DNA of 32,606 nucleotides from contig JAOPZP010000376.1 of the NCBI GenBank assembly GCA_025964055.1, positions 1 to 32,606 of the forward strand, read 5' to 3'. Under the pieces are notes generated by a model. The model had not been told where the DNA came from and did not search any database. It saw only the letters and a program-made list of their open reading frames with translations. This document shows positions 7,788-32,606 of this stretch, piece by piece (positions within the stretch are counted from its first letter, which is position 1; each line of letters begins with the position of its first letter). Both the position numbers and the translations under genes were made by a program. The stretch comes from Conexibacter sp. GTDB lineage: Bacteria > Actinomycetota > Thermoleophilia > Solirubrobacterales > Solirubrobacteraceae.

Positions 7788-7812
7788 CACCCGGCTGCAA
7801 ATAGAATAATAA
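7784..7812 (+). promoter_or_regulatory. Sigma70-like promoter TTGACA-N17-TAATAA
   Basis: -35 at 7784-7789 overlaps the ferredoxin stop codon; -10 at 7807-7812, upstream of HyuA. Confidence 0.6.
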
Positions 7813-7821
7813 TTACACTTA
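7809..7821. promoter_or_regulatory. Shared motif site D (ATAATTACACTTA)
   Basis: Overlaps the -10 region upstream of HyuA. Confidence 0.6.
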
Positions 7822-7847
7822 GCGTGTTTGCGACGGAGGAGAGCCAC

Positions 7848-10025: not shown

Positions 10026-10059
10026 GCATCGGGACCCAAGGTCGGAAGGAGCACAGAGC

Positions 10060-11967: not shown

Positions 11968-12040
11968 CAAGCCCTACCAAGCGACGCTGCGCGCAGCCGC
12001 GCGCCGGTCGCCCTGAGTGTCGACAGAAGGAGGGAAGGCG

Positions 12041-13206: not shown

Positions 13207-13210
13207 CACG

Positions 13211-14167: not shown

Positions 14168-14185
14168 CCCAGACACAGAGGAGCA

Positions 14186-15664: not shown

Positions 15665-15690
15665 GGCCGCAGCGGAGCCGCGCCGAGACG

Positions 15691-16431
15691 ATGCTCGACC
15701 GTCGGATGCAAGCCCCGGGCGTCGCGGTGGCCACGCTCAACCAGCCGGAGCGCGGCAACTGCCTGTCCGACGAGATGATCGCCGCGCTGCTCGGCTGGAT
15801 CGACGAGATGGAGCAGCGCGAGGACGTGAGCGTCCTCGTCATCGAGGGGCAGCCGCGCGTCTTCTGCGGCGGCGGCAACGTCAAGGTGTTCCGCAACTGG
15901 GGCGCGTGGACCGCCACCGAGCGGCAGCGGTACGTGGCGACGGTGATCCAGCCGCTGTTCCGCCGGCTGGTCCACACGCCGTTGCTGACGGTCGCGTGCG
16001 TGCAGGGGGCGGTCGTCGGCGCCGGCCTCGACCTCCTGCTCGCGTGCGACCTGCGGTTCGCCGCCGCCTCGGCCAGCGTGCGCACCGGGTACCTGGACGT
16101 GGGGCTCGTGCCCGGCGCCGGGTCGCCCTGGCACCTGTCGCGCCTGCTCGGGACGAGCCGCGCGCTGGAGCTCCTGTTCTCCAGCGAGCGGCGGACGGCG
16201 GCCGAGCTCGCGGAGTGGGGGCTGTTCAACGGCGTCTTCGCCGACGAGGAGCTGCAACCGGCCGTCGCCCGGACGTGCACGGCGATCGCGGCGCACGGAC
16301 GCGACCGCGTCGGTCCGTTGAAGGGCCTCGTGCGGACGGCCGCCGAGGAGTCGCTGGACACGCACCTGGACCGCTCGGCGACCCTGCTCGCCTTGCTGGG
16401 CGAGGCGCGGGCCGAGGGCGAGCAGACCTGA
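15691..16431 (+). CDS. Enoyl-CoA hydratase/isomerase family protein with non-canonical active site
   Basis: PRVFCGGGNVKVF, GAVVGAGLDLLLACD, YLDVGLVPGAGSPWHLSR; lacks both hydratase Glu residues. Confidence 0.82.
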   Translation: MLDRRMQAPGVAVATLNQPERGNCLSDEMIAALLGWIDEMEQREDVSVLVIEGQPRVFCGGGNVKVFRNWGAWTATERQRYVATVIQPLFRRLVHTPLLTVACVQGAVVGAGLDLLLACDLRFAAASASVRTGYLDVGLVPGAGSPWHLSRLLGTSRALELLFSSERRTAAELAEWGLFNGVFADEELQPAVARTCTAIAAHGRDRVGPLKGLVRTAAEESLDTHLDRSATLLALLGEARAEGEQT

Positions 16432-16446
16432 CGCCGGACCAAGTAC

Positions 16447-16463
16447 GGTGATATCATTACACC
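16447..16463. promoter_or_regulatory. Shared motif site E (GGTGATATCATTACACC, imperfect palindrome)
   Basis: Upstream of the acyl-CoA synthetase. Confidence 0.6.
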
Positions 16464-16513
16464 GAACGCAGTTGTTCGGGGCTTACTGAGGCATTCTTGG
16501 AGGGCGGCGACCG

Positions 16514-18103
16514 ATGGGCGATCGTGGTTCGGCGTGGGACTGGGTGGCGGCGCAGGCGGAGCGATCTCCAGACCGTCGGTTCATCTTCTTCGAAGGCGAG
16601 TGGCTGACGTACGGCGACGTGGTGGCCCGGGCCGACGGTGTGGCCCGCGGCCTCAGCGTCGTGGGCGTCTCCAAGGGCGACCGCGTCGCCTTCCTCGCGG
16701 GCAACTCCCCGGACTACTTCGTCACCTTCCTGGCGGTCGTCCGCCTCGGAGCGCTGTTCGTGCCGATCATCGACGGCTCCAAGCTGCCCGAGATCGAGTA
16801 CGTCATCAACCACTCCTCCTCGTCCTACCTGGTCACCGACGAGGCGCACCTGGGCGAGATGGGCCTGGCGTCGGCGGACCTGATGGCTGACCTACGGCAC
16901 GTGTTCCTCCTTCCTCAGCCCGAAGGGGACGCCGCCGCGGAGAGCGGGCTCCCGGACGCCGGCCCCGAGCGCCTGACGCTGGACGACCTGCGCGCCATCG
17001 AGGCGCCGTCGCCGTCGGTGCACGTGTCGGGCGACGACGACCTCGGGATCTTCTACACGTCGGGGACGACCGGCAAGCCGAAGGGCGCGGTGCTGCCGCA
17101 TCGGGGGCTGGCCGAGGCCGGGCACCTGATGGCCGAGCGCCTGCAGTACGGACCGGATGACGTCGTGCTGTGCGCGCTGCCGCTGTTCCACGTCGGCGGC
17201 CTGCACTACTGCATGGCGCCGGCCATCGCGGCGCGCAGCGGCGTGATGCTCCAGCGCCGGTTCAGCGTGAGCCGCTTCTGGGCCGACGTCGAGAAGTCCG
17301 GTGCGACGGCGGGCCTGCTGATGCCGGCCATGATGGCCATGCTGCTCACGTTGCCCGAGGCGCCCGACGATCGCGACCATTCCCTCAAGCTCGTGTGCTC
17401 CCACTCCCGCGACCAGAAGTTCTCCGGGCGCTTCGGCGTCGACATCGCGACCACCTGGGCGCTCAGCGAGGGCAGCGGGATCGGCACCTTCACCGCTCCG
17501 GGCTACGAGCGCCACGAGGAGAACCTCATCGGATGGCCGCTGGGCAACGGCGAGCTGAAGATCGTCGACGAGTTCGGCGCGGCGTTGCCCGCCGGCGGCG
17601 TGGGCGAGATCTGCATCCGTCACGACTCGCTGATGCGGGGCTACTGGAACGACTCGGTCCAGACCCGGTTCACGCTGCGGGACGGGTGGCTGCACACCGG
17701 CGACGTCGGCCGCCTGGACGACGAGGGACGGCTCTTCTTCGAGGGGCGCGTCAAGAACATGATCAAGCGCGCCGGCGAGAACGTCGCGGCAGAGGAGGTC
17801 CAGGCCGTCATCACGCAGCACCCGGACGTCGTCGAGTGCGCGGTCATCGGCGTGTCGGACCCGATCCGGACCGAGGAGGTCAAGGCGTTCGTCGTCTGCA
17901 CGGACGGCGCGTCGCTGTCCGGCGAGCAGCTGGTCGAGTGGTGCGAGGAGCGCCTGTCGAGCTTCAAGGTGCCGCGGTACGTCGACTTCACGACGGACCT
18001 GCCCAAGAGCACGACCGGGAAGATCCAGCTGTTCAAGCTCCGCGCGCTGCCCGAGCAGACGGGCTGCTGGGACCGCGCCGCGGCCGAGGGAACCGGACGA
18101 TGA
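16514..18103 (+). CDS. AMP-binding acyl-CoA synthetase/CoA ligase
   Basis: FYTSGTTGKPKGAVLPH, GYWNDSVQTRFTLRDGWLHTGDVGRLD, KNMIKRAGENVAAEEVQ, KSTTGKIQLFKLR. Confidence 0.95.
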   Translation: MGDRGSAWDWVAAQAERSPDRRFIFFEGEWLTYGDVVARADGVARGLSVVGVSKGDRVAFLAGNSPDYFVTFLAVVRLGALFVPIIDGSKLPEIEYVINHSSSSYLVTDEAHLGEMGLASADLMADLRHVFLLPQPEGDAAAESGLPDAGPERLTLDDLRAIEAPSPSVHVSGDDDLGIFYTSGTTGKPKGAVLPHRGLAEAGHLMAERLQYGPDDVVLCALPLFHVGGLHYCMAPAIAARSGVMLQRRFSVSRFWADVEKSGATAGLLMPAMMAMLLTLPEAPDDRDHSLKLVCSHSRDQKFSGRFGVDIATTWALSEGSGIGTFTAPGYERHEENLIGWPLGNGELKIVDEFGAALPAGGVGEICIRHDSLMRGYWNDSVQTRFTLRDGWLHTGDVGRLDDEGRLFFEGRVKNMIKRAGENVAAEEVQAVITQHPDVVECAVIGVSDPIRTEEVKAFVVCTDGASLSGEQLVEWCEERLSSFKVPRYVDFTTDLPKSTTGKIQLFKLRALPEQTGCWDRAAAEGTGR

Positions 18104-18138
18104 CCCTGCCACGGGCCGCCGAGGCGTCGCGACCGTGA
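18100..18138 (+). other. 12-codon mini-ORF bridging the CoA ligase and the APH-like kinase
   Basis: ATGACCCTGCCACGGGCCGCCGAGGCGTCGCGACCGTGA. Its start overlaps the ligase stop (ATGA) and its stop overlaps the next start (GTGA). Confidence 0.4.
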
Positions 18139-19178
18139 CGACCGGGTCGCCGGCCGCCGCAGACGCGGCGGAGCTGGTCGAGCGCCTTCGGCCGTTCGTC
18201 GCCGAGGCCCTGCCCGAGCTGTCCTCGCTCTCCTCGGCGCGGCGGCTGACCGGCGGCCTGTCCTGCCTGACCTACCTGGTCGGCGGCGACGGCTGGGAGG
18301 CGATCCTCCGCCGTCCGCCGCGGGGCGCGCCGCCACAGCACGACTTCGCCCGTGAGTTCCGCGTCCTCGAGCGTATGTCGAGCGCCACGTCGATCCCGGT
18401 GCCGCGGCCGCTGCTGCTCTGGGAGGACCCGTCGGTCATCGGCGCCCCGTTCTTCCTCATGGACCGGGTGGAGGGCGTCGTCCTGGGCCGAGACACCGCG
18501 CCGGCGCTTCGCGCCCAGCTCGACGGTGCCCAGGTCGGGACGCTGCTCGTCGAGGTGCTCGCCGACCTGGCACGGGTGCCGCCCGAGGTCCTGCCCAGCC
18601 GCAAGGCAGAGAGCGGCTACCTCGAGCGGCAGCTGGGCTTGTTCCGGAGGCTGTGGGATGCGAACAAGACGCGCGAGGTGCCCGAGGTCGAGGAGCTCGC
18701 CGCGTGGCTGGAGTCCCACCGTCCGACGACGCAACGCCTGTCGGCCGTGCACGGTGACTTCAAGATCGACAACGTCATGTTCGTGCCGGGCGGCGAGCCC
18801 GGTATCGCCGCCATCCTCGACTGGGAGCTGGCCGCCGCGGGCGATCCGCTCGTCGACCTGGGCTGGCTGCTGTTCTTCCTGACCCTCGACGCCCAGGACG
18901 AGCTCGAGCTCGGCGACCACGCGATCCGGGCCGGCACCGCGTTCCCGGCGCGTGGCGAGCTGGCCGACCGCTATGCCTCGCGCACCGGGCTGGACCTCGC
19001 CGAGCTCCCCTGGTACGTGGCGCTGTCGGGCTTCAAGCTCGCCGCGATCATGGAGGGCTCGTACCGCCGGTACCTCGAGGGCGACCGCGACTACCCGCAG
19101 TTCGCCGCGCTCGAACACGCCGTCGTGCGCTGGGCGCGGCGCGGCCTGCGGGCCGCTCGGTCCGAGCTGGCGCTCTAG
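18135..19178 (+). CDS. APH-family phosphotransferase (ACAD10/11 N-domain- or LvaA-like)
   Basis: LSAVHGDFKIDNVMF and AAILDWELAAAGDPLVDLGWLLFF are the APH catalytic and metal motifs. Confidence 0.85.
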   Translation: MTTGSPAAADAAELVERLRPFVAEALPELSSLSSARRLTGGLSCLTYLVGGDGWEAILRRPPRGAPPQHDFAREFRVLERMSSATSIPVPRPLLLWEDPSVIGAPFFLMDRVEGVVLGRDTAPALRAQLDGAQVGTLLVEVLADLARVPPEVLPSRKAESGYLERQLGLFRRLWDANKTREVPEVEELAAWLESHRPTTQRLSAVHGDFKIDNVMFVPGGEPGIAAILDWELAAAGDPLVDLGWLLFFLTLDAQDELELGDHAIRAGTAFPARGELADRYASRTGLDLAELPWYVALSGFKLAAIMEGSYRRYLEGDRDYPQFAALEHAVVRWARRGLRAARSELAL

Positions 19179-19199
19179 CCGCGTTGGACCGACATAGGT

Positions 19200-19213
19200 G
19201 TATCATTACGCTA
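19200..19213. promoter_or_regulatory. Shared motif site F (GTATCATTACGCTA)
   Basis: Upstream of the BadH-like SDR. Confidence 0.55.
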
Positions 19214-19256
19214 AATGCGAAGCGCCCGGCTTCCGGGCACGCTGAAAGGGGAGTCG

Positions 19257-20012
19257 ATGTCGTCACGAGTTGCGCTGGTCACGGGCGGTGCCAGGGGAAT
19301 TGGGCGTGCTATCGCCCTGCGCCTCGGTGAGGAGGGCCATCCCGTCGCCGTCGCCGACCTGTCCGCGGACGGGGCCGCCGACGTCGCTCGCGAGATCAAC
19401 GACGCAGGCGGACGCGCGATCGCCCTGCCTGTCGACATCACCGACTCGGCGGGGGTCCGGGACGCCGTCGCCATCGCCAACGAGGAGCTGGGGCCGATCG
19501 AGGTCCTGGTCAACAACGCCGGCTGGGACGACCTCATGCCGTTCGTCGAGACCGACGAGCCGTTCTGGGACCGCGTGATCGACATCAACTACAAGGGCGT
19601 GCTGCGCCTGACCTCGGCCCTGCTGCCGGGCATGCTCGAGCGGCGCTGGGGGCGCATCGTCAACATCGGCTCCGACGCGGCGCGAGTCGGCTCCTCCCAC
19701 GAGGCGGTCTACGCCGGCGCGAAGGGCGCGGTCATCGCGTTCACGAAGACCATCGCCCGCGAGAGCGCCCGGGCCGGCGTCACGGCCAACGTCGTCTGCC
19801 CAGGCCCGACCGACACGCCGCTGCTGGGCGAGATCGTCGGCGCCGCGGAGGACTCCGCCAAGGTCATCTCGCGCATGACCTCGGCCGTGCCGATGAAGCG
19901 CGTCGGCCAGCCGTCCGAGATCGCCGCCGCGGTGGCGTTCCTGGCTGGGGAGGACGCCGGGTTCATCACAGGCCAGACGCTGTCCGTCAGCGGCGGCCTC
20001 ACCATGGCCTGA
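19257..20012 (+). CDS. SDR-family oxidoreductase resembling 2-hydroxycyclohexanecarboxyl-CoA dehydrogenase (BadH)
   Basis: RIVNIGSDAARVGSSHEAVYAGAKGAVIAFTKTIARESARAGVTANVVCPGPTDTPLL...GFITGQTLSVSGGLTMA; these segments match my recollection of BadH. Confidence 0.8.
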   Translation: MSSRVALVTGGARGIGRAIALRLGEEGHPVAVADLSADGAADVAREINDAGGRAIALPVDITDSAGVRDAVAIANEELGPIEVLVNNAGWDDLMPFVETDEPFWDRVIDINYKGVLRLTSALLPGMLERRWGRIVNIGSDAARVGSSHEAVYAGAKGAVIAFTKTIARESARAGVTANVVCPGPTDTPLLGEIVGAAEDSAKVISRMTSAVPMKRVGQPSEIAAAVAFLAGEDAGFITGQTLSVSGGLTMA

Positions 20013-20013
20013 G

Positions 20014-21177
20014 ATGAGGATGCCCGAACCGCTCATCGTCGCCGCCGCTCGCACGCCGATCGGGCGCGCGCACAAAGGCTCGCTCGTCGATGTCCGGCCG
20101 GAGGACCTGGCCGCGCTGGCCATCGACTCGGCGCTCTGCCAGGTCCCGGCGCTCGAGCGTGATGCGATCGAGGACGTCATCGTCGGCTGCGCGTTTCCCC
20201 AGCAGCAGCAGGGGATGAACGTCGGCCGGCGCGTTGCCTTGCTGGCGGGGCTCCCCCCGAGCGTGCCGGGGACGACCGTCAACCGCTTCTGCGCGTCGAG
20301 TCTCCAGGCCATCCGGATGGCGGCGCACGCCATCCGCGCCGGGGAGGGCGACGTATTCGTCGCTGCGGGGGTCGAGTCCGTCTCGCGCGTCAACGGGTAC
20401 CCCACCGGCGACGATCGCCATCCGCGCCTCCATGGCGACGACGCGGTGGCCAATGCGTACGTGCCCATGGGGATCACCGCGGAGAACGTCGCACGGCGAT
20501 TCGGTGTCGAGCGCGACGAGATGGATCGGTTCGCCCAGCGGTCGCACGAACGCGCCGTCGCCGCCCAGGACGCCGGGTTCTTCGAGCGCGAGATCGTCCC
20601 CTGCGTCCGGCCCGACGGCTCGGTCGTGCGGGACGACGACGGGCCCCGACGCAACTCGTCGCTCGAGCGGCTCGGCCAGCTCGATCCCGCCTTCCTCCCG
20701 GAGGGCACGGTGACCGGCGGCAACTCCTGCCCGCTGAACGACGGCGCGGCGGCGGTGGTGCTCATGAGCGACGCGGCCGCCGAGCGGTTCGGCGTCCGGC
20801 CCGTCGCGCGGATCCTGGCGTCGGCCGTCAGCGGCATCGAGCCCGAGCTCATGGGGATGGGCCCCGTGGTGGCGGCGCGCCGCGCCCTGGAGCGCGCGGC
20901 GCTGAAGGTCGCCGACCTCGACGTCATCGAGCTCAACGAGGCCTTCGCGGCCCAGGTGCTGCCCGTGTGCCGCGAGCTGGGGATCGACCCGTTCGGTGAC
21001 ACGCTGAACCCTCACGGCGGCGCGATCGCCCTCGGCCATCCGTTCGGCATGTCTGGCGCCCGGATCATGGGCACGCTTCTCAAGGGTCTCGGCTCGCGCG
21101 ACGTCGAGCTTGTCCTGGAGATGATGTGCGTGGGCGGCGGACAGGGCATGGCGATGGTCGTCGAGCGCGTGGCATGA
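20014..21177 (+). CDS. Thiolase (acetyl-CoA C-acyltransferase)
   Basis: VNRFCASSLQAIRMAAHAI, NEAFAAQVL, GGAIALGHPFGMSGAR, MMCVGGGQGMAMVVE; all catalytic motifs present. Confidence 0.95.
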   Translation: MRMPEPLIVAAARTPIGRAHKGSLVDVRPEDLAALAIDSALCQVPALERDAIEDVIVGCAFPQQQQGMNVGRRVALLAGLPPSVPGTTVNRFCASSLQAIRMAAHAIRAGEGDVFVAAGVESVSRVNGYPTGDDRHPRLHGDDAVANAYVPMGITAENVARRFGVERDEMDRFAQRSHERAVAAQDAGFFEREIVPCVRPDGSVVRDDDGPRRNSSLERLGQLDPAFLPEGTVTGGNSCPLNDGAAAVVLMSDAAAERFGVRPVARILASAVSGIEPELMGMGPVVAARRALERAALKVADLDVIELNEAFAAQVLPVCRELGIDPFGDTLNPHGGAIALGHPFGMSGARIMGTLLKGLGSRDVELVLEMMCVGGGQGMAMVVERVA

Positions 21178-22001
21178 CCCCGAGCGACGCGCGCTCCGGC
21201 GGCCCGTCGGCGACCGTGGACCTGCAGTGCTCGGGCTCGATCGCGACGATCCGCCTGGACCGCCCCGAGGCCCTGAACGCCTTCGACCGCCGGCTGGGCG
21301 AGGACCTGCTCGCCGCGCTGCGCCGCGTCGCCGCCGACGACGCGATCCGCGCGGTGGTGCTCACCGGCGCCGGGCGTGCGTTCTCCTCCGGCTTCGATCT
21401 CACCACCGTTCGCAACGGCGACTTCGTCGCACCCGACGGGCGCCCGGACCTCTACCGGATCCTCGTCGAGCGCTTCCACCCGTCGATCGCCTGCATCCGC
21501 CAGATGCCCAAGCCCGTCGTGGCGGCGGTGCGCGGACCAGCGGTCGGGATCGGCGTCTCGCTCGCATTGTGCTGCGACCTTGTCGTGGCGTCCGAGAACG
21601 CGTACTTCCTGCTGGCCTTCATCAACCTCGGCCTCGTCCCCGACGGGGGCGCGTCGCTGTTCGTGCCCAGTCGCGTGGGCATGACGCGCGCGACGCGGAT
21701 GGCCATGTTCGGCGAGCCCGTGCCCGCGCACCAGGCTGCGGAATGGGGGCTGATCGACGACGCGTATGCCGATGACGAGTTCGACGCACGGTTGGATGCG
21801 CTGCTCGAACGGCTCGGTGCCGGCCCGACGCGGGCCTACGCCGGAATCAAGCGCCAGCTGAACTACTGGCTCTCCGCGCGCATGCGCGAGCACCTGGAGC
21901 TCGAGGCGTCGATCCAGCAGGAGCTGACCGCCACCTCCGACTTCCGCGAGGGCATCAGCGCCTTCGTCGAGAAGCGAGGGGCGAGCTTCACCGGTTCCTG
22001 A
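21174..22001 (+). CDS. Enoyl-CoA hydratase/isomerase family protein, PaaG/ECI-like
   Basis: ATGA overlap with the thiolase. GRAFSSGFDL, GPAVGIGVSLALCCD, INLGLVPDGGASLFVPSRVG (Asp in the PaaG-like position). Confidence 0.83.
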   Translation: MTPSDARSGGPSATVDLQCSGSIATIRLDRPEALNAFDRRLGEDLLAALRRVAADDAIRAVVLTGAGRAFSSGFDLTTVRNGDFVAPDGRPDLYRILVERFHPSIACIRQMPKPVVAAVRGPAVGIGVSLALCCDLVVASENAYFLLAFINLGLVPDGGASLFVPSRVGMTRATRMAMFGEPVPAHQAAEWGLIDDAYADDEFDARLDALLERLGAGPTRAYAGIKRQLNYWLSARMREHLELEASIQQELTATSDFREGISAFVEKRGASFTGS

Positions 22002-22035
22002 CGCCTCGTCGCGCGCGTCGCCGCGCGACGACCGA

Positions 22036-22064
22036 TTGACTTCGGGGATAATCCTCTGTTAGAT
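22036..22064 (+). promoter_or_regulatory. Promoter-like TTGACT-N17-TTAGAT
   Basis: Upstream of the substrate-binding protein; the -10 overlaps site G. Confidence 0.5.
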
Positions 22065-22073
22065 TACACTTAT
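22059..22073. promoter_or_regulatory. Shared motif site G (TTAGATTACACTTAT)
   Basis: Upstream of the ABC transporter operon. Confidence 0.6.
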
Positions 22074-22093
22074 CATCCGGATATCCCCGGATG
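22074..22093. promoter_or_regulatory. Inverted repeat CATCCGG-ATATCC-CCGGATG
   Basis: Perfect 7-bp arms directly after site G and before the SBP start. Confidence 0.55.
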
Positions 22094-22115
22094 TCTGTCT
22101 GAGGAGAGAGCGTTA

Positions 22116-23276
22116 ATGGTCGATCGTCGTATGACCTTGAGTCGACGTGCGCGGTGTTTGGTGGTGGTCGCCGCCGTCGCGGGGATGGGAACCGCGGTCG
22201 CGGGTTGTGGTGACAGCAGCACGGGTCAGAAGACTGCCGCGGCGGCCCCGTCGGCCGCAAGCAGCGGGCTTCAGGAGGCCGAGAAGTTCGTCGCGGCGCA
22301 CAAGTCCGCCCCCACGAGCGTCGGCGCGCTCGAGCCGCTCTCGAAGCGGCCGCCGCAGGGCAAGAAGCTCGTGTACCTCTCATGTGGCGTCCCGCTGTGC
22401 ACGCTGATCGGGCAGGGAGTCCAGGAGGCCGCGCAGCAGTTGGGGTGGAAGGTCCAGCAGCTGACGGCGGGCGCCCTGCCCGAGACCGTCTCCAACGCCT
22501 GGAACCAGGCTCTTCGCCTCAAGCCCGACGGCGTCCTCTCCGTCACCGGCTCCAGGGCGCTCTACAAGCGCCAGCAGGCCGAGTTCGCCAGCAGGGGCGT
22601 CCCGCACGTGGCGCAGGCGGTCCTCGACCCGACCAACGACGGCCTTATCGCGGTGTTGTCGGGTCCGAAGAACTACGTCGAGCGCGGGAAGTGGATGGCC
22701 AACTGGGTCGTCGCCGACACCAAGGCCAAGGCCAACGTCCTGTACTTCACGACGCCTGACTTCCCGATCGTCAACTCGACGCTCGACGGCTTCAAGGCCG
22801 AGATCAAGCGGCTCTGCGACACCTGCGCGGTGGAGAGCCACGACGTCCCGACGTCGTCGATCGGCAAGGAGCTGCCCAGCCAAGTCGTGAACGCGGCACA
22901 GCGCAACCCGAAGGCCAACTACGTCGTCGTGCCCTACGGCGACGTGACCATCGGCATCCCGCAGGCGCTGCAGGCCGCCGGGCTCGCCAACCGCGTCAAG
23001 GTCATCGCCGCCAACCCAGCGTTGACGAACCTCGCGAACATCAAGTCCGGCACCGCCGAGGTCGCATCGGTGGCCGAGGGCAACAAGATGTCGGGCTGGA
23101 TGATGGTCGACGCCATCGCCCGCAAGCTGGTCGGCGACAAGCTGCCGCTGGACACCTACGCGCGGTTGCCGCCGCACCAGTACCTGACGGCGGACAGCAT
23201 CGAGGACCCCAAGCAGCCGTACGTCGGCGTCGCGGGCTACCAGGACGAGTTCGAGCGTTTGTGGCAGCTCCGGTGA
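22116..23276 (+). CDS. ABC transporter substrate-binding lipoprotein (sugar/CUT2-like fold)
   Basis: N-terminal signal with lipobox VAGC (GTAVAGCGDSSTG). Periplasmic-binding features: LVYLSCGVPLCTLIGQGVQEAAQQLGWKV, VVVPYGDVTIGIPQALQAAGL. Confidence 0.85.
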   Translation: MVDRRMTLSRRARCLVVVAAVAGMGTAVAGCGDSSTGQKTAAAAPSAASSGLQEAEKFVAAHKSAPTSVGALEPLSKRPPQGKKLVYLSCGVPLCTLIGQGVQEAAQQLGWKVQQLTAGALPETVSNAWNQALRLKPDGVLSVTGSRALYKRQQAEFASRGVPHVAQAVLDPTNDGLIAVLSGPKNYVERGKWMANWVVADTKAKANVLYFTTPDFPIVNSTLDGFKAEIKRLCDTCAVESHDVPTSSIGKELPSQVVNAAQRNPKANYVVVPYGDVTIGIPQALQAAGLANRVKVIAANPALTNLANIKSGTAEVASVAEGNKMSGWMMVDAIARKLVGDKLPLDTYARLPPHQYLTADSIEDPKQPYVGVAGYQDEFERLWQLR

Positions 23277-24817
23277 CCACCGAGGTGCCGGCGGGCGAGC
23301 GTGGCGGCGATGCCGTCACGCTCGCGCTCCGCGACGTGACGAAGACCTTCCCAGGGCAGGTCGCCGTCAACCGCGTCGACCTCGACCTCCGACCGGGTCA
23401 GATCCACGGGCTCGTCGGCCAGAACGGGTGCGGGAAGTCCACGCTCATCAAGATCATGGCCGGCTTCCACGCGCCTGACCCCGGAGCGGGCGCGTGGTTC
23501 GACGGCGAGCCGTTCGAGCTCGGGTCGGCGAGCGCCGCCGAGCAGGCAGGCATGCGGTTCATCCACCAGGATCTCGGCCTCGTCCCCACGCTCAACACCG
23601 TGGACAACCTGGCGCTGGGCCACGGGTACGAGTCGCGGCGGTTCGTGCGGCTGGGCGGCGAGGCGCGGCGCGCACGAGCCCTGCTCGCTGAGTTCGGCTT
23701 CGAGTTCGACGTCGGGATCCCCATGGCGCAGCTCACGCCGGTGCAACGCACCGGGGTGGCGATCGCCCGGGCCATGAGCGAGCAGCACGGTCGCCGGCTG
23801 CGGGTCCTGGTGCTGGACGAGCCGACCGCATCGTTCGACTCGGCCGACGTCGCGCAGCTCTTCGCCGTGCTGCGGCACGCCAGCAGCCGCGGGGTCGCCA
23901 TCTTGTACGTCTCCCACCGGCTTGACGAGATCCTCGAGATCACCCACGAGACGACCGTGCTGCGCGACGGCCGGCTGATCTCCACCGTGCCCACGGAGGA
24001 GCTCAGCCACGAGTCCCTGATCGAGCTCATCCTCGGCCAGGCCCCCGAACCGCACTCCGGCGGCGCCCACGTGCACAGCAGCGAGGTCCGGCTCAGCGTC
24101 GAGCACCTCCGCGGCGGCCCCGTCCGGGACGTCTCGTTCGTCGTGCACGCGGGGGAGATCGTCGGCCTGGCCGGCATCGTCGGATCCGGGCGTGACCTGG
24201 TCCCGTACCTGGTCGGCGGCGCGCAGCGGCCGTCCGGGGGCAGCGTCCTGGTCGACGGCGAGCCGGTCGCGCGCCTCACCCCGCGCGGGGCCCTGCGCCG
24301 CGGCCTCGTCTTCGTCCCCGGCGACCGTCAGGGCAAGAGCGCGATCGCCTCGCTCGCCGTTCGGGAGAACCTCACGCTGCCGCGCCTGCCCACCCGCGGG
24401 CCGGCCCGGTGGCTCGGCGTCCGCCACGAGCGGCGCGAGGCGAGCACATGGCTGGAGCGCTTCGACGTGCGCCCTCGCCAGCCCGATCGGCCGCTCGCGA
24501 CGCTCAGCGGCGGCAACCAGCAGAAGGTCGTGCTCGCGCGCGCCATGCGCTGCGATCCGCGCGTGCTCGTCATCGACGAGCCGGTCCACGGCGTGGACGT
24601 GGGCGCCAAGCGCGCCATCTACGAGCTCCTGCGCGAGGCCACCAGGCAGGGCGTCGGCGCCCTCCTCGCCTCCGGCGACGTCGACGACCTGGCGGCGGTC
24701 TGCGACCGGGTCGTCGTCCTGCGCGACGGGATCGTGGTCGCCGAGCTCCACGGGCGCGACAACACCGTGGACCGCATCACCCGGGAAACCCTGGCTCGAC
24801 AGAACGAGGCGACGTGA
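23273..24817 (+). CDS. Two-domain ABC transporter ATP-binding protein (RbsA/MglA-like)
   Basis: GTGA overlap with the SBP. Walker A GQNGCGKSTLIK, Walker B VLVLDEPTASFD; second domain LSGGNQQKVVLARAM...VLVIDEPVHGVDVGAK. Confidence 0.92.
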   Translation: MTTEVPAGERGGDAVTLALRDVTKTFPGQVAVNRVDLDLRPGQIHGLVGQNGCGKSTLIKIMAGFHAPDPGAGAWFDGEPFELGSASAAEQAGMRFIHQDLGLVPTLNTVDNLALGHGYESRRFVRLGGEARRARALLAEFGFEFDVGIPMAQLTPVQRTGVAIARAMSEQHGRRLRVLVLDEPTASFDSADVAQLFAVLRHASSRGVAILYVSHRLDEILEITHETTVLRDGRLISTVPTEELSHESLIELILGQAPEPHSGGAHVHSSEVRLSVEHLRGGPVRDVSFVVHAGEIVGLAGIVGSGRDLVPYLVGGAQRPSGGSVLVDGEPVARLTPRGALRRGLVFVPGDRQGKSAIASLAVRENLTLPRLPTRGPARWLGVRHERREASTWLERFDVRPRQPDRPLATLSGGNQQKVVLARAMRCDPRVLVIDEPVHGVDVGAKRAIYELLREATRQGVGALLASGDVDDLAAVCDRVVVLRDGIVVAELHGRDNTVDRITRETLARQNEAT

Positions 24818-25869
24818 CTAGCACCGGCAACACCGCTCCCATGCCGCGAGCGGGACGATGGGCGAAGGCGCGACACGACGCGACGAGGTTCCTGGGCCCG
24901 TCGAGGGTGAGCGCCCTCTACACGTGGGTCGTGATCATCATCGTCTTCAGCATCTGGATCCCCGAGACGTTCCTCACCACGCTGACGTGGGAGAACATCG
25001 CCGCGTCGCAGGCGATCACCGCCATGCTGACGCTCGGCCTGCTGTTCCCGCTGGCCGCCGGGGTGTACGACCTCGCGGTGGGCCAGACGCTCGGCTTCGC
25101 CGCGGTGCTGTCGGCCTACCTGGTCAACCACGGGTTCGGCACGGCGTCGGCCATCGCGGTGACGCTCCTCGCCGGGCTCTGCGTCGGCGTGGTCAACGGC
25201 GTGCTGATCGTCGGGGTCCGCATCAACTCGTTCATCGCGACCCTGGGCGTCAGCTCGGTGCTGCTCGCGATCGTGGGCGCCATGTCGAACAACATCCAGA
25301 TCACCGGCCTGCCGTCGTCGTTCGAGCGCTTGGCGGGAGCGCAGCCGCTCGGGATCCCGATCGCGGTGATGTACCTCGTCGTCCTGGCGGTCGTGGCGTG
25401 GTACGCCTTGGAGCGCTCGCCCTTCGGTCGCTACCTGTTCGCCATCGGCGGGGCGGAGGAGGCGGCGCGCCTGGCGGGCGTCCCGACGCGGCGCCTCATG
25501 TTCGCCGCGCTGTTGATCAGCTCCACCACGGCGGCGCTCGCCGGCGTCGTGCTGACGGCCAAGCTCACGGCGGGTGACCCGGCTGCAGGCCCCAGCTACC
25601 TCCTGCCCGCGTACGCGGCGGCGTTCCTGGGGGCCACCCAGTTCACCCCCGGCCGGTTCAACGTGATCGGGGCGCTCACCGCGACCTATCTCCTGGCCAC
25701 CGGCGTCGCCGGGCTGCAGCTCACCGGCGCGAAGTTCTGGGTCACCGACCTCTTCAACGGCGTTGTGCTGCTGATCGCGCTGTCGCTTCCCATGGTGCAG
25801 GGGCGTCTGCGCCGCCGCAGTGCGGACATCGCCGCCCGCGAGGCGTCGAGCGCTCCGAGCGGATCATGA
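24814..25869 (+). CDS. ABC transporter permease (RbsC-like)
   Basis: GTGA overlap with the ATPase. Multiple hydrophobic helices; GVVNGVLIVGVRINSFIATLGVSSVLLAI, LERSPFGRYLFAIGGAEEAARLAGVPTRR. Confidence 0.92.
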   Translation: MTSTGNTAPMPRAGRWAKARHDATRFLGPSRVSALYTWVVIIIVFSIWIPETFLTTLTWENIAASQAITAMLTLGLLFPLAAGVYDLAVGQTLGFAAVLSAYLVNHGFGTASAIAVTLLAGLCVGVVNGVLIVGVRINSFIATLGVSSVLLAIVGAMSNNIQITGLPSSFERLAGAQPLGIPIAVMYLVVLAVVAWYALERSPFGRYLFAIGGAEEAARLAGVPTRRLMFAALLISSTTAALAGVVLTAKLTAGDPAAGPSYLLPAYAAAFLGATQFTPGRFNVIGALTATYLLATGVAGLQLTGAKFWVTDLFNGVVLLIALSLPMVQGRLRRRSADIAAREASSAPSGS

Positions 25870-25909
25870 TGCACAACGACGGGGGACATGCATCGATGAG
25901 GTGCCATCA

Positions 25910-25930
25910 ACGGGCAGCTACGTTGCCCGT
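25910..25930 (+). terminator. Hairpin ACGGGCA-N7-TGCCCGT after the ABC permease (possible terminator without a T-tract)
   Basis: Perfect 7-bp arms; no downstream T run, so a terminator role is uncertain. Confidence 0.3.
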
Positions 25931-26003
25931 GCCGGCCTGTGCCCGTCGTCGTCGCGCATCCGATCAGTCCACCCGGAAAGGTAGTCCGGCACGGTCCCCG
26001 TGC

Positions 26004-26017
26004 TAGAGTGTGATTAT
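26004..26017. promoter_or_regulatory. Shared motif site J (TAGAGTGTGATTAT) overlapping the GntR start
   Basis: TAGAGT-N6-ATG geometry; a variant of the shared motif. Confidence 0.45.
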
Positions 26018-26795
26018 GTGCAGGAGTCCGTCCTCGGGCATGCCGAGCTTCGTCGTTCCCGCCTACGGGACCCCTCGCAAGGCCGGCGAGCTGCTCGCCG
26101 ACGAGATCCGGGCGAGCATCATCGGCAGCGGCCTGGCCGCCGGCTCCAGGCTCCTGTCCGAAGGCGAGCTGATCGAGCAGCGCGGCCTCAGTCGGGCAAC
26201 CGTGCGCGAGGCGCTGCGCCTGCTCGAGGCCGAAGGGCTGATCACCGTCAAGCGCGGGCCGCGCGGCGGGATCACGGTTCGCCATCCGGATCCGTCGCAC
26301 ATCAGCCGGGCCCTCGCCACGATGGTCGCGCTGCGCGACGTCTCCCTGCGCCAGCTGTTCGACTTCCGGCTCTCGATCGAGCCGGATGCGGCAGGGGCGG
26401 CGGCGGCGGAGATCAGCGACGAATGGCGCGCGGCGTTGCTCGCCTCGACCGAGCCGTCGGAGTCCCACGTCCCCGAGAGCGTCGACTTCCATGTCCTCGT
26501 CGCCCAGGCCTCCGGCAACGCCCTGAACCACATCGTGCTCGCCGCGCTGCACGAGGTGCTCGAGCTCCACGTGCGCCTCGAGGCGCTCTCCGAGGAGACG
26601 TGGGAGCAGACTCGGTCGGCGCACGAGAAGATCGCCCGAGCGATCGCTTCCGGGAACAGCGCGAAGGCGCACAACGCCATGCGGCGGCACCTCGAGCAGT
26701 TCCGGGACGACATGGAGACCGCCGGCCGGCTCGACGAGCCGGTCATCCCGCGCTCGGCGTGGCGCCGCCCGGGCAGCACGGCGCCGTTTCGCTGA
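26016..26795 (+). CDS. GntR-family transcriptional regulator, FadR/FCD subfamily
   Basis: wHTH LLSEGELIEQRGLSRATVREALRLLEAEGLITVKRGPRGGITV. FCD domain with VDFHVLVAQASGN, AHEKIARAI, RRHLEQF. An alternative GTG start lies at 26010. Confidence 0.92.
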   Translation: MCRSPSSGMPSFVVPAYGTPRKAGELLADEIRASIIGSGLAAGSRLLSEGELIEQRGLSRATVREALRLLEAEGLITVKRGPRGGITVRHPDPSHISRALATMVALRDVSLRQLFDFRLSIEPDAAGAAAAEISDEWRAALLASTEPSESHVPESVDFHVLVAQASGNALNHIVLAALHEVLELHVRLEALSEETWEQTRSAHEKIARAIASGNSAKAHNAMRRHLEQFRDDMETAGRLDEPVIPRSAWRRPGSTAPFR

Positions 26796-26829
26796 GCCGG
26801 GGCAGGCCCGGCCCGGGCAACTCCCGGGA

Positions 26830-27627
26830 CTATGCGTGTGGGCCCGAAGGCGCCCGAGCGTCGTTTCGGTCGAAGAACCGCCGGATGCGCTCACGCGTGT
26901 CGCCGCCCGCGAACAGCGCGACGATCTCCTCGAGCTCATGCGCCATGCCTTGCTCGGGCTGCGACTGCGCCATGTCGACGCATCGGACGATCGCGGCGCC
27001 CGCGCGCGTTGAGCCCTGGCAGTAGCGGGTGGCCCAGTCCAGCGCGGCGGCGTCCGGCGCGTCGTCGACCCGCGTGACGAGGCCCAGGGCGACGGCCTCT
27101 TCGGCGTCGGCCTGGCGACCGGAGAGCATCAGCTCGAGCGCCGCGGCGCGCCCGATCATGCGGGTCAGGCGCTGCGTCCCGCCGGCCCCGGGCAGCAGGC
27201 CGAGCCGAACCTCGGGGAGGCCCAGCCGGGCACGCGGGCTGGCGAAGCGCAGATCGCAGGCGAGCGCGAGCTCGAGACCTCCTCCCAGGGCCACCCCGTC
27301 GATCGCGGCCAGCGTGATCGCCGGGAGGTCGGCGACGGCCTCGACCGCCTCGCGGACCGCCATCACGTATGCGCGAAACTCATCGGGCTCCGCGCCGCGG
27401 ACCACCGTCAGGTCCGCGCCCGCGCCGAAGTAACCGTCGACGCCGGACCGCAGGACGACCGCCTCGATCGGCGCGGAGCGCAGCTGCGCCATCGTCTCGG
27501 CGAGCGCGCGCACGAGCTCGACGGAGAAGGCGCCGACGGGCGGGTTGCGCAGCGTGACGACGGCGACGGCGCCCTGATGCGACACCTCGACGGCGGGGCC
27601 GGCCGGCTCCTGGCGATCGGCGCTCAC
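26830..27627 (-). CDS. Enoyl-CoA hydratase with canonical catalytic Glu pair
   Basis: GTG start 27627 overlapping the upstream stop (GTGA). GVALGGGLELALACD, LGLPEVRLGLLPGAGGTQRLTRMIG. Confidence 0.88.
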   Translation of the reverse strand: MSADRQEPAGPAVEVSHQGAVAVVTLRNPPVGAFSVELVRALAETMAQLRSAPIEAVVLRSGVDGYFGAGADLTVVRGAEPDEFRAYVMAVREAVEAVADLPAITLAAIDGVALGGGLELALACDLRFASPRARLGLPEVRLGLLPGAGGTQRLTRMIGRAAALELMLSGRQADAEEAVALGLVTRVDDAPDAAALDWATRYCQGSTRAGAAIVRCVDMAQSQPEQGMAHELEEIVALFAGGDTRERIRRFFDRNDARAPSGPHA

Positions 27628-30002
27628 CGCTGCGGCTCCGTCTCCGCGCGCCGGAGCCCGCACGACGCCGCGTGCGTCAGCGCGTGTGGCGGGAAGGGAT
27701 GGTTGCGCTGCTCCAGCGCGGCGCGGTACCAGAAGTGGAGCTCCTGCTCCCAGGTGAACCCAGCGCCTCCGTGCGCCTGGATGCAGCGCTCGACGACCAA
27801 CGGGTACATACGGCCGCACGCGCTCCGGCTACAGGCCAAGCCGAGGTCGTCGGCCGCCGCGTCGTCGCCGAGGTTCACGGCGACGTCGTAGGCGTGCCCG
27901 CGAGCGAGCTCCAGATCGACGTAGGCGTCGGCCAGCATGTGCTTGACCGCTTGGAAGGACCCGACGGGCACGCCGAACTGCTCGCGCTGGCTGACGTACT
28001 TGATCGTCCGGCGCAGCATCTCCTCCGCGCCGCCCAGGGCCTCCCCGTCGAGGCAGATCATGTAGGCCATGAGGCGCGTCACGACGAGCGAGTTCAGATC
28101 GCAGGGCCATCCGCCGAGGAACCCGGCGGAGTCGATGGCGACACCCTGCAGGACGAGGTCGGCCGCAGGCCGTGCGGGATCGACGGTCGGTCGCGGGGCG
28201 ACGGCCACGCCGGGGTGGTCGCGCGACACCACGGCGACGACCACGCGCTCTCCCAGCTCGATCGGGACGAGGAAGTGGTCCACCAGCTGGCCGAAGGGCA
28301 CGGCCTCCGCCCGTCCCGACAGGCGCAGTCCGCCGTCGGGCTCATAGCTGGGCTGGATGCTCGTCCACCGCGGGGATGCGGGCGTCCCGCCGTCGGGCAT
28401 GACCACCGTGGCCAGCGTCCGCCCGGTGAGCACGTCGTCGAGATTCACGCCGCCGGTCGCGTCGGGATGGGCGCTGAGCAAGGGCACGACCATCGCGGTG
28501 GTCATGGAGAACGGACCCGGGAGCAGATGGGCTCCGACGCTCTCGCTGAGGTGCAGCAGCGTGACGTTGTCGGCGGCGTCGTCGGCGTCGGCTCCGAGGC
28601 CGAACCAGCCCGCCTCCGCGACGGCGCTCCAGATCGCGGGCGAGAAGCCGTCGGTCTCCCGGGCCGCGTCCAGCGAGTCCTTCGAGAGGACGCTGTGGAG
28701 CATCGACTCGAAGCCGTCGCGCAGCAGGTCCTGCTCGTCGCTGACCGCCAGGCCTCCGGCGCGCACGCGAGGCGACGAGTCGGCGCGAGCGCTCCCCGAG
28801 CTCGACGGCAGGCCGATGCCGCGGGCGATCTGGTTGCGCTGGATCTCCGAGGTGCCGCCGTAGATGGTCTCGCCGCGCGAGAACATGAACGCGCGCAACC
28901 ACTCGGCCCCCTCGCCGGCGGCGCGGGTCTCGAGCGCCGCGACCACAAGGCCGAGCAGTTCCTGATGGGACTCGCTCCAATGCAGCTTCGTCAGCGCGGC
29001 GAGCGTCCCCACGCGGTCGGGCTCGTGGATCAGCCGCAGCACGCGCCCGACCGCGCTCGTCAGCAGCCTGCTGTCGATGTAGCAGTCGAGCAGCTGCGCG
29101 GACAGGCCGGGATCGCTGGAGGCGCAGCCACTCGGGGAGTCGAAGGGACGCACCAGGCGGATCGCGGTGCTGACCTCGCGCCGGAACCGCAGCGCACGCT
29201 CGGCGAAGGACAGGCCGCGCTCGAGCGAGAGGGCCTCCATGGCCAGGTCCCAACCCTGGTGGAGCTCGCCGATGACCTGGGACCGCGGGACGACGGCGTC
29301 GTCCAGGAACACCTCGGCGAACTCCGCCCCGCCCGCGATGTTCTGCAGGGAGCGGACCGAGACGCCGGGCTGGCGCATGTCGAGGATGACCAGGCTGATG
29401 CCCGCGTGCTTCGGCCCGGTGGCGTCGGTGCGCACGAGGGCGTAGCAGAACTGCGCGCGCTCGGCGAATGACGTCCAGATCTTCTGCCCGCTCAGGATCA
29501 GGCTGTCGTCCTCGAGCCGCGCGCGGGTCTGCAGGTTGGCGAGGTCCGATCCTGCGTTGGGCTCGGAAAAGCCCTGACACCACAACTCGGAGTGGTCCAG
29601 CATGGGCAGCAGGAACCGGTCGATCTGCTCCTGCGTGCCGTAGCGGATGAGCAGCGGGCCCACGATCGCGATCCCATTGGAGTTCAACGCTTCGGGGGCT
29701 CCCGCCCGCACCAGCTCCTCCAGGACGACGAGCTCAGCCTCGATCGGCAGGTCGCGCCCGCCGTAGGCCTCGGGCCAGCCGGGCGCCGCCCAGCGGCCGG
29801 CGGCCAGGCGCTCGCCCCAGCCGCGTCGGATCGGCACTGCGCGCTCGTCCGGTGTTCCGCGTGTGATGTCGCGCCACTCCGGGGGGAGGTTCTCATCCAG
29901 CCAGGCGCGGAACTCCTCGCGCAGGAGCCTCAAGCGATCGGCATCCCAACCGTGGGCGCGGTCACCGTCCATTGAAGGCTGACGCGTATGGAGAGAAGGC
30001 AT
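27624..30002 (-). CDS. Fused two-domain acyl-CoA dehydrogenase
   Basis: About 790 aa. First ACAD domain: GFSEPNAGSDLANLQTRARLED...GGTSEIQRNQIARGIGLP. Second: KYVSQREQFGVPVGSFQAVKHMLADAYVDLELA...CIQAHGGAGFTWEQELHFWYR. Start chosen at 30002 from the promoter geometry. Confidence 0.88.
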   Translation of the reverse strand: MPSLHTRQPSMDGDRAHGWDADRLRLLREEFRAWLDENLPPEWRDITRGTPDERAVPIRRGWGERLAAGRWAAPGWPEAYGGRDLPIEAELVVLEELVRAGAPEALNSNGIAIVGPLLIRYGTQEQIDRFLLPMLDHSELWCQGFSEPNAGSDLANLQTRARLEDDSLILSGQKIWTSFAERAQFCYALVRTDATGPKHAGISLVILDMRQPGVSVRSLQNIAGGAEFAEVFLDDAVVPRSQVIGELHQGWDLAMEALSLERGLSFAERALRFRREVSTAIRLVRPFDSPSGCASSDPGLSAQLLDCYIDSRLLTSAVGRVLRLIHEPDRVGTLAALTKLHWSESHQELLGLVVAALETRAAGEGAEWLRAFMFSRGETIYGGTSEIQRNQIARGIGLPSSSGSARADSSPRVRAGGLAVSDEQDLLRDGFESMLHSVLSKDSLDAARETDGFSPAIWSAVAEAGWFGLGADADDAADNVTLLHLSESVGAHLLPGPFSMTTAMVVPLLSAHPDATGGVNLDDVLTGRTLATVVMPDGGTPASPRWTSIQPSYEPDGGLRLSGRAEAVPFGQLVDHFLVPIELGERVVVAVVSRDHPGVAVAPRPTVDPARPAADLVLQGVAIDSAGFLGGWPCDLNSLVVTRLMAYMICLDGEALGGAEEMLRRTIKYVSQREQFGVPVGSFQAVKHMLADAYVDLELARGHAYDVAVNLGDDAAADDLGLACSRSACGRMYPLVVERCIQAHGGAGFTWEQELHFWYRAALEQRNHPFPPHALTHAASCGLRRAETEPQR

Positions 30003-30005
30003 ATC

Positions 30006-30017
30006 AGTATAATAATA
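30006..30017. promoter_or_regulatory. Shared motif site H (AGTATAATAATA)
   Basis: Immediately upstream of the fused ACAD start; TATTAT-N6-ATG on the minus strand. Confidence 0.5.
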
Positions 30018-30027
30018 GATCGGAACT

Positions 30028-30062
30028 GCCACGCCAAGTCCGACCTTGGAGCGGGGCGTGGC
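30028..30062. promoter_or_regulatory. Nested inverted repeat GCCACGCC...GGCGTGGC in the divergent ACAD/FprA region
   Basis: Perfect 8-bp outer arms with an inner CCAAG/CTTGG pair. Confidence 0.5.
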
Positions 30063-30090
30063 GACGGACCGTCAGCGATCGCGTGATATG

Positions 30091-30105
30091 AGTGTACTTA
30101 TTGAC
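30091..30105. promoter_or_regulatory. Shared motif site I (AGTGTACTTATTGAC)
   Basis: Upstream of FprA; long match to site A. Confidence 0.5.
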
Positions 30106-30170
30106 CCGAGCCCAAGGAGCGCCGCCTTGAACGTCCTTCCCGTCACTCCGGCCTCGTACCGCCAGGGCCG

Positions 30171-31577
30171 ATGGGCGTGACGGCGAAGCCCGGCGGCGCG
30201 GGCTCTCCGTTGCGGGTCGCGATCGTCGGCTCGGGCCCCGCTGGGTTCTATGGCGCCGGTCAGCTGCTGAACGCGCCCGATCTCGCCGTCGAGGTCGAGA
30301 TGTTCGACGGCCTGCCGACGCCGTGGGGGCTCGTCCGTGCCGGCGTGGCGCCCGACCACCCGAAGATCAAGTCGGTGAGCCGGGTGTTCGAGGGCATCGC
30401 CGGCAAGCCCGGCTTCCGTTTCCATGGCAACGTCGAGGTCGGCGTCGACGTCTCGCACGAAGAGCTCGCCAGCGCTCATCACGCAGTGATCTACGCGACC
30501 GGCGCACCGACGGACCGGCGGCTGGGCATCCCGGGCGAGGACCTCCTCGGCAGCCATGCCGCGACCGAGTTCGTCGCCTGGTACAACGGCCACCCCGACC
30601 ATGCCGGCCACGAGTTCGACCTCAGCGCGCCGCGCGCGGTCGTCATCGGCAACGGCAACGTCGCGCTCGTCGTGGCCCGGATGCTGGCGCTCACGCCCGC
30701 GGAGCTCGCCAGGACGGATACGGCCGACCACGCCCTCGAGGCGCTCGCGCGGTCAGGCGTCGAGGAGATCGTCGTGCTGGGCCGGCGCGGGCCGGCGCAG
30801 GCGGCGTACACCAATCGCGAGCTGTTGGAGCTCGCCGAGGTCGCGGACGCAGACGTGGTCGTCGACCCGGCCGAAGCGGCGCTCGACGAGCACAGCCGGG
30901 CCTTCCTGGAGTCCGACGCGTCGAGCCTGACCGAGCAGCGCAACGTCGAGATCGTGGCCGACTACGCGCAGCGCCGTCCCGCCGGCAAGCGCAAGCGGAT
31001 CGTCCTTCGGTTCCTGGCCTCGCCGACGGAGATCCTGGGATCGGAGCACGTCGAGGGGGTCCGCGTGGCGCGCAACGAGCTGACCACGGAGCTGCTTGCC
31101 CGCCCGACCGGGGTGACCGAGATCATCGAGGCCGGGCTGGTCCTGCGTTCCATCGGATACCGCGGGACCCGCATCCCCGGCGTCCCCTTCGACGACCGCC
31201 GCGCGACGATCCACAACCACCGCGGCCGCGTCACCGTCGAGGGCACGAGCGAGCCGCTGCCGGGGATCTACACCGCTGGGTGGATCAAGCGCGGACCCTC
31301 GGGCGTGATCGGCACGAACAAGAAGTGCGCGCACGAGACGGTCGGCCTGCTCCTCGAGGACCTCTCCGCGGGCCGCCTGCCCGAGCCCACGGCGGACCCC
31401 GACCAGGTGCTGTCGGCGATCGCCGAGCGCGGCGTGGACTTCGTCGACTACGTCGGTTGGGAGGCGGTGGACGCACACGAGCGAGCCATCGGCGAGCTCC
31501 AAGGCCGCCCCCGGGTCAAGCTCGTTCGCCGAGCGGAGCTTCTGGAGCACGCCAAGGCGGGGCCGGTTGCATCCTGA
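30171..31577 (+). CDS. Ferredoxin-NADP+ reductase (FprA/adrenodoxin reductase-like)
   Basis: RVAIVGSGPAGFYGAGQLL, DGLPTPWGLVRAGVAPDHPKIKSV, VVIGNGNVALVVARML, AGWIKRGPSGVIGTNKKCA. Confidence 0.93.
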   Translation: MGVTAKPGGAGSPLRVAIVGSGPAGFYGAGQLLNAPDLAVEVEMFDGLPTPWGLVRAGVAPDHPKIKSVSRVFEGIAGKPGFRFHGNVEVGVDVSHEELASAHHAVIYATGAPTDRRLGIPGEDLLGSHAATEFVAWYNGHPDHAGHEFDLSAPRAVVIGNGNVALVVARMLALTPAELARTDTADHALEALARSGVEEIVVLGRRGPAQAAYTNRELLELAEVADADVVVDPAEAALDEHSRAFLESDASSLTEQRNVEIVADYAQRRPAGKRKRIVLRFLASPTEILGSEHVEGVRVARNELTTELLARPTGVTEIIEAGLVLRSIGYRGTRIPGVPFDDRRATIHNHRGRVTVEGTSEPLPGIYTAGWIKRGPSGVIGTNKKCAHETVGLLLEDLSAGRLPEPTADPDQVLSAIAERGVDFVDYVGWEAVDAHERAIGELQGRPRVKLVRRAELLEHAKAGPVAS

Positions 31578-31605
31578 CGCCGGCGGGGACGGCACAGCGG
31601 GCCTG

Positions 31606-32196
31606 ATGCGGGTGCTGCGCACCTTCGCGTTCCTGGACCTGTCGGGCTTCACCGCGTTCACCGAGACCTACGGCGACATCGACGCCGTGGAGGTGATCGC
31701 CCACTTGCGGAGCACCATCCGCTCGGCAGCGCAGTCGAGCGGCGTGCGCGTCACCAGATGGCTTGGCGACGGCGCGATGCTCTCGGGCATCGGCGCTCCC
31801 GCAGTCCTCGGTTGTGCAGCGTCGATCTGCGACGTGATCAGCGAGCAGGGGCGCCTGCCGATCCGCGGTGGGATCTGCGAGGGCCGCGTGATCATGTTCG
31901 AGGGCGCCGACTACGTCGGCGCCGCGGTCAACGTCGCCGCCGGCCTGTGCGCGTCGGCCGAAGCCGGACAGCTGCTGACCACCGCGCGGACCGCGAGCCG
32001 CGCGAGGGCGGGCCTTCTGGCGGTCGAGGTGGGGCGGACGCCGATCCCGGGCCTGGTGGCCGATGTCAACGTCGTCGCGCTCGAGCGCTTCTGCGCGGCT
32101 CGATCGAGCGCGGGGGTCGCCTCCATGGGGTCGAGTTCAAGGTCCGGATCGAGCAGCTCGCCTGCCGGCCGACCTCGGGCGCGCGCGGCCCGATGA
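31606..32196 (+). CDS. Class III adenylate/guanylate cyclase-domain-like protein (possibly inactive)
   Basis: TFAFLDLSGFTAFTETYGD, TRWLGDGAMLSG, GADYVGAAVNVAAGLCASAEAGQLL. ATG 31606 preferred over TTG 31567. Confidence 0.75.
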   Translation: MRVLRTFAFLDLSGFTAFTETYGDIDAVEVIAHLRSTIRSAAQSSGVRVTRWLGDGAMLSGIGAPAVLGCAASICDVISEQGRLPIRGGICEGRVIMFEGADYVGAAVNVAAGLCASAEAGQLLTTARTASRARAGLLAVEVGRTPIPGLVADVNVVALERFCAARSSAGVASMGSSSRSGSSSSPAGRPRARAAR

Positions 32197-32205
32197 CTCG
32201 GCCGC

Positions 32206-32606
32206 TCAGTCCAGCTGCTCGTACGCCGGCAGCGTCAGGCACTCCTCGAGAGCGGGCGATCTCGGCGGCGGCCGCGTCTTCCATCATCCCGTAGATCCCC
32301 GCGGCGCCGTTGCCGCGCAGCCACGAGGAGATGTACTGGATGCCGACGTTGACGTCGTTTCGCAGGCCCGCTTCGGTGATGTCGGGCCCGAGCCCTGGTC
32401 CAGCAGCCTGCGGGTGTTGTGGTACAGGAACAGGCCCGCGTCGACGAGCGCCCCGGTCTCGCCGGCGGCGATCCGCGCGCGACGCTCGCGGCGGGCGGCC
32501 AGCAGCTCCTGCCGGCGCGGCTCGAAGCGCTCGTGCAACCGGCCGACGAAGGCCAGCGCCTCGTCGTCGAGCACCTCGGCCGTGCGGCCCTGGGGCGGAT
32601 CGGCGA
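32206..32606 (-). pseudogene. Malate synthase A-like remnant with multiple internal deletions and frameshifts (5' end beyond window)
   Basis: Reverse strand carries an N-terminal block ([40 protein letters not shown]), an internal block ([24 protein letters not shown]), a C-terminal block in another frame ([45 protein letters not shown]) and the terminus in a third frame (LEECLTLPAYEQLD*). Confidence 0.75.

What the first reader, a model, noticed from the sequence alone, without database searches (positions are those of the whole stretch)
32206..32606. Malate synthase reduced to four colinear fragments in three reading frames
The reverse strand contains the recognisable N-terminus, a short internal piece, a C-terminal piece and the very last residues of malate synthase A, in order but with the catalytic barrel segments missing. 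Junctions are near 32455-32460, 32383-32390 and 32248-32251, and reading frames change at the last two. The last junction shares CTC on both sides. This is either an unusual multi-deletion pseudogene or a sequencing/assembly artefact. If real, the glyoxylate shunt must rely on another malate synthase or a different acetyl-CoA assimilation route.
Basis: partly seen in the sequence, partly recalled or inferred. Interest (0 to 1): 0.6.

Follow-up and report, generated by a model that had tools for sequence, protein, structure and literature searches.

The report
Broken spare malate synthase gene remnant
The last 400 bases of this contig hold the leftovers of a malate synthase gene that has lost three internal pieces; it is either a recently broken spare copy or a contig-end assembly error, and it has little metabolic meaning because the same genome bin carries an intact malate synthase elsewhere.

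Summary
On the minus strand, window 32606-32206 carries four colinear pieces of a malate synthase A gene (Pfam MS_N E=3e-12, MS_C E=4e-14). Against the closest intact gene found (Conexibacter sp. MAG, G107; 86.6% aa over the retained parts) three sharply bounded segments are absent: 366, 613 and 197 bp, at window 32456|32455, 32383|32382 and 32250|32249. About 24% of the codons remain. The barrel metal-ligand segments are gone, so no enzyme can be made. Differences from G107 fall mainly at third codon positions (34 of 55), with no extra stops or indels inside blocks, so the loss is recent or is not biological.

The window is the whole contig, so the defect occupies its terminal 1%. The contig shows no synteny with congeneric genomes, unlike two control contigs, so it may be an island or mis-binned.

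I cannot separate a natural multi-deletion pseudogene (favoured slightly: no second case among 72 gene-sized loci, 23 near contig ends) from a contig-end assembly/library error without reads. Either way it is ordinary. Low interest.

The parts
32456..32606 (-). Block 1: N-terminal part of malate synthase A, from about codon 6 to 54 (homology 32456-32598); start codon lies beyond the contig end
   Evidence: 121/143 nt columns (85%) and 40/47 aa to G107:C120; Pfam MS_N E=3.4e-12
32383..32455 (-). Block 2: internal piece ([24 protein letters not shown]), G107 codons about 177-201, same frame as block 1
   Evidence: 59/73 nt, 20/24 aa to G107
32250..32382 (-). Block 3: C-terminal-domain piece with the [12 protein letters not shown] motif, G107 codons about 406-449, shifted frame
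   Evidence: 117/133 nt (88%), 39/43 aa to G107; Pfam MS_C E=3.6e-14, profile positions 2-45 of 118
32206..32249 (-). Block 4: last residues (LEECLTLPAYEQLD) and stop codon TGA (32208-32206)
   Evidence: 43/46 nt (94%, counted to 32204) to G107 codons 516 to stop
32455..32456 (-). Junction 1: 366 bp absent relative to G107 (about codons 55-176), in frame
   Evidence: gapped alignment allowing long deletions; 348-372 bp with nine other orthologues
32382..32383 (-). Junction 2: 613 bp absent (about codons 202-405, the core of the TIM barrel), frame +1
   Evidence: 610-619 bp with nine other orthologues
32249..32250 (-). Junction 3: 197 bp absent (about codons 450-515), frame +2, restoring the first frame
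   Evidence: 123-203 bp with nine other orthologues, eight of them 176-203
31567..32196 (+). Convergent neighbour: guanylate/adenylate-cyclase-like domain protein, apparently intact; its stop is 9 bp from the malate synthase stop
   Evidence: 57-62% aa identity to same-genus homologues; PF00211 E=0.004, below Pfam's cut-off

Best explanation
This is the remnant of a second malate synthase A gene, of the lineage found in a Conexibacter-like relative, inactivated by three internal deletions (366, 613 and 197 bp) so recently that the retained 24% still looks like a gene under selection. Shown: four blocks, three sharp junctions, frame changes, loss of the barrel segments, a codon-position-3 bias of differences, an intact malate synthase A of another lineage on a different contig. 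Inferred: that the deletions are real genomic events, by end joining or template slippage with about 1 nt of overlap, tolerated because another malate synthase gene is present or the gene was not needed. It makes no functional enzyme: the frame breaks before block 3, and the metal-binding barrel segments are gone.
For: Block structure and junctions reproduced against nine orthologues and G107. Retained 395 nt differ from G107 at 55 positions, 11/10/34 by codon position, without internal stops or indels in the native frame of each block. G107 is best or co-best for all four blocks among about 95 malate synthase loci and is the sister in a block-only tree (support 0.96), so one gene explains all pieces. 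Intact malate synthase A on C49, other lineage. Other genes of the contig tested with Pfam match their families over most of their length. No comparable multi-deletion gene among 72 gene-sized loci in 540 kb of the assembly, 23 of them within 300 nt of a contig end; two automatic flags were explained as natural gene arrangements. The bin encodes Ku, so end joining is available if the contig belongs to it.
Against: All three junctions lie in the last 357 bases of a 32606-bp contig, where assembly errors are commonest. No stop or small indel accompanies the large deletions, which is unusual for natural decay. No second genome was seen with the same deletion allele. The contig's membership of this genome is doubtful.
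Confidence: 0.5

Rival explanations
1. Contig-end assembly or library artefact: the organism has an intact gene here and the terminal 400 bases were assembled from chimeric or collapsed fragments of it.
For: Position in the terminal 1% of the contig; fragmented assembly of 618 contigs, typically 3-10 kb; blocks otherwise free of damage; deletion endpoints with about 1 nt overlap, as in random chimeras.
Against: A k-mer assembler needs reads that contain each junction, and there is no long shared word at the junctions; three colinear joins within 208 bp need a multiply chimeric molecule. No similar case at 23 other loci near contig ends. No other contig of the bin carries the missing barrel segments of this lineage.
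Confidence: 0.44
2. A short functional protein made from the malate synthase N-terminal region (for example the 96-aa ORF 32574-32284, minus strand).
For: An open frame with a GTG start runs through blocks 1 and 2.
Against: After block 2 it runs out of frame through block 3 and stops; the barrel is absent; no other genome among 232 of the order was seen with this form; Pfam sees only a partial MS_N domain.
Confidence: 0.02
3. The blocks belong to a different short protein family, not malate synthase.
For: None found.
Against: Each block aligns to its proper place in intact malate synthase A genes of many genomes, at 80-94% DNA identity to G107, and that gene aligns to solved malate synthases 3cux and 3cuz over its full length.
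Confidence: 0.01

Closest known systems
Malate synthase A (AceB type; Pfam PF20656 + PF01274 + PF20659), as in Conexibacter sp. RYN_242 (JAOPZA010000209.1)
   Same: All four blocks match in order; 86.6% aa identity over 127 aligned residues; sister in a block-only tree
   Different: Three internal segments of 366, 613 and 197 bp missing, frame broken, metal-site barrel segments absent
Deletion pseudogenes of bacteria
   Same: Gene recognisable but truncated internally, reading frame broken
   Different: Three large deletions without accompanying small damage, and at a contig end, so an artefact is not excluded

Membership tests
Malate synthase A (functional enzyme) | N-terminal domain MS_N (PF20656) | tested here: met
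   46.1 bits over cut-off 23.5, profile 13-55 of 64
Malate synthase A (functional enzyme) | TIM-barrel domain PF01274 with the metal ligands (the LIETLP and GRWDY segments) | tested here: not met
   No over-cut-off barrel match in C187; both segments lie in the 613-bp gap by alignment to 3cuz through G107; their role as Mg ligands is from general knowledge
Malate synthase A (functional enzyme) | C-terminal domain MS_C (PF20659) | tested here: inconclusive
   Only profile positions 2-45 of 118 present, in a shifted frame
Malate synthase A (functional enzyme) | One continuous reading frame of about 530 codons | tested here: not met
   Frame shifts at 32383 and 32250; about 128 of 529 codons remain
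Natural deletion pseudogene | Deletions present in the genomic DNA of the organism | not testable with these tools
   No reads are available; feature is at a contig end
Natural deletion pseudogene | Homologous to an intact gene in relatives | tested here: met
   G107, G092, G009, G076 and others

The most novel reading that the evidence does not exclude
A single complex deletion event (serial template switching) removed three separate segments of one gene at once and left the rest untouched, giving an unusually clean record of such a mutation in an uncultivated actinobacterium.
Probability: 0.12. Interest if true: 0.3.

Novelty: new member of a known kind. Interest (0 to 1): 0.12.

Why it matters
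It matters mainly as a caution: annotation pipelines could call this organism deficient in malate synthase, or call a truncated enzyme, whereas the bin has an intact copy of another lineage. If the deletions are real, the locus would be a clean example of clustered deletion in one gene.

Tried and rejected
Shared CTC microhomology at the last junction: rejected from the junction sequence. Frequent artefact in this assembly: 72 gene-sized loci tested, only this one held up; the flags on C195 and C201 were an antisense-frame effect and, most likely, a natural lipoyl-Lpd fusion. Missing barrel pieces on another contig of the bin: not found. A relative with the same gene order or the same deletion allele: not found in family or order searches. 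A genome-contig search with the neighbouring cyclase-like protein found no relative. A paper search on pseudogenes and chimeric contig ends in metagenome-assembled genomes gave nothing specific.

Full report
What is there. The minus strand of window 32606-32206 holds four pieces of a malate synthase A gene, in order. Pfam recognises the N-terminal domain (PF20656, E=3.4e-12) and the start of the C-terminal domain (PF20659, E=3.6e-14) in two different frames. Alignment with nine intact orthologues, allowing long deletions, always gives the same three breaks, with about 365, 613 and 200 bp missing in most comparisons. The closest intact gene found is in G107, contig C120, which is the record JAOPZA010000209.1, Conexibacter sp. 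isolate RYN_242. Against it the blocks are 121/143, 59/73, 117/133 and 43/46 nt identical, and the missing segments are 366, 613 and 197 bp at window 32456|32455, 32383|32382 and 32250|32249. The reading frame changes at the second and third junctions; the three losses sum to 1176 bp, a multiple of three.

State of the retained sequence. The 395 retained bases differ from G107 at 55 positions: 11 at codon position 1, 10 at position 2 and 34 at position 3, and no block has an internal stop or indel in its own frame. So the sequence diverged under selection on the protein, and the deletions are recent or not biological. Only about 128 of 529 codons remain. The segments LIETLP and GRWDY, which by general knowledge of the E. 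coli enzyme contain the magnesium ligands, lie in the 613-bp gap by alignment with 3cuz; the MEDAATAEI motif of the C-terminal region is kept. No active enzyme can come from this locus. The contig ends about 5-7 codons inside the gene, so the start codon is not seen.

One source gene. Among about 95 malate synthase loci, G107 is best or equal best for blocks 1, 2 and 4 and within noise of the best for block 3, and the concatenated blocks are sister to G107 with support 0.96. So the pieces need not come from different organisms.

The metabolic inference. The same bin has an intact malate synthase A on contig C49: TIM barrel 356 bits, MS_C 122 bits, 531 aa from its likely start. It belongs to a different branch, near G002 of the same genus and a Solirubrobacter. 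Isocitrate lyase (PF00463) was not found, but the bin is only 68% complete, so absence means little.

Does the contig belong to the genome? Two control contigs of the bin (C118, C185) align to same-genus genomes in blocks of 3-10 kb at about 80-86% identity. Contig C187 from 13000 on gives only single-gene or shorter matches, nearly all at 78% or less outside the malate synthase, no closer to the genus than to other genera. It carries a catabolic gene set (cytochrome P450, hydantoinase/acetone-carboxylase-type subunits, SDRs, enoyl-CoA hydratases, acyl-CoA ligase, thiolase). It is either an accessory island or a mis-binned contig of another family member. In the second case the remnant says nothing about this organism.

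Real or artefact? The window is the whole contig, and all junctions lie within 357 bases of its end. That favours an artefact. Against it, I found no other gene with colinear large deletions in 540 kb of this assembly: 72 gene-sized loci had usable relatives, 23 within 300 nt of a contig end, and the only two further flags (C195, C201) are explained by reading-frame effects and a probable natural lipoyl-dihydrolipoyl-dehydrogenase fusion. This control is small and would miss an error rate of several per cent per contig end. Junction overlaps are about 1 nt, so no k-mer-sized repeat would lead an assembler to make these joins, and three joins within 208 bp need reads that contain them. The bin encodes Ku proteins, so end-joining deletions are possible there. 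I place a natural pseudogene at 0.50 and an artefact at 0.44. Reads would settle it at once.

Verdict. What it marks is a dead second copy of a common gene, or a flawed contig end. It is ordinary.

Noticed in passing
window 13000-32606 (contig C187): No multi-gene synteny with six same-genus genomes, unlike control contigs C118 and C185 (80-86% identity over several kb); the contig is an accessory island or mis-binned.
   Followed up: partly
window 27624-30032, minus: One 802-aa open frame contains two acyl-CoA dehydrogenase units (N and middle domain matches in the first half, C-terminal match in the second).
   Followed up: no
window 7788-12406, plus: Hydantoinase A-like, hydantoinase B-like and acetone-carboxylase-gamma-like genes in a row, next to P450, SDR and aldehyde dehydrogenase genes: looks like a ketone or aromatic-ketone carboxylase catabolic cluster.
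   Followed up: no
G000 (whole bin): Malate synthase A present on C49 but no isocitrate lyase (PF00463) hit; bin 68% complete.
   Followed up: partly
G000:C226:3460-4721 (L173, L174): Two Ku-domain matches side by side on one contig and a third on C439.
   Followed up: no
L294 (G000:C201) 9736-11652, minus: Dihydrolipoyl dehydrogenase with its own N-terminal lipoyl domain, apparently following an E2 gene end; same-genus G005 is arranged differently.
   Followed up: partly
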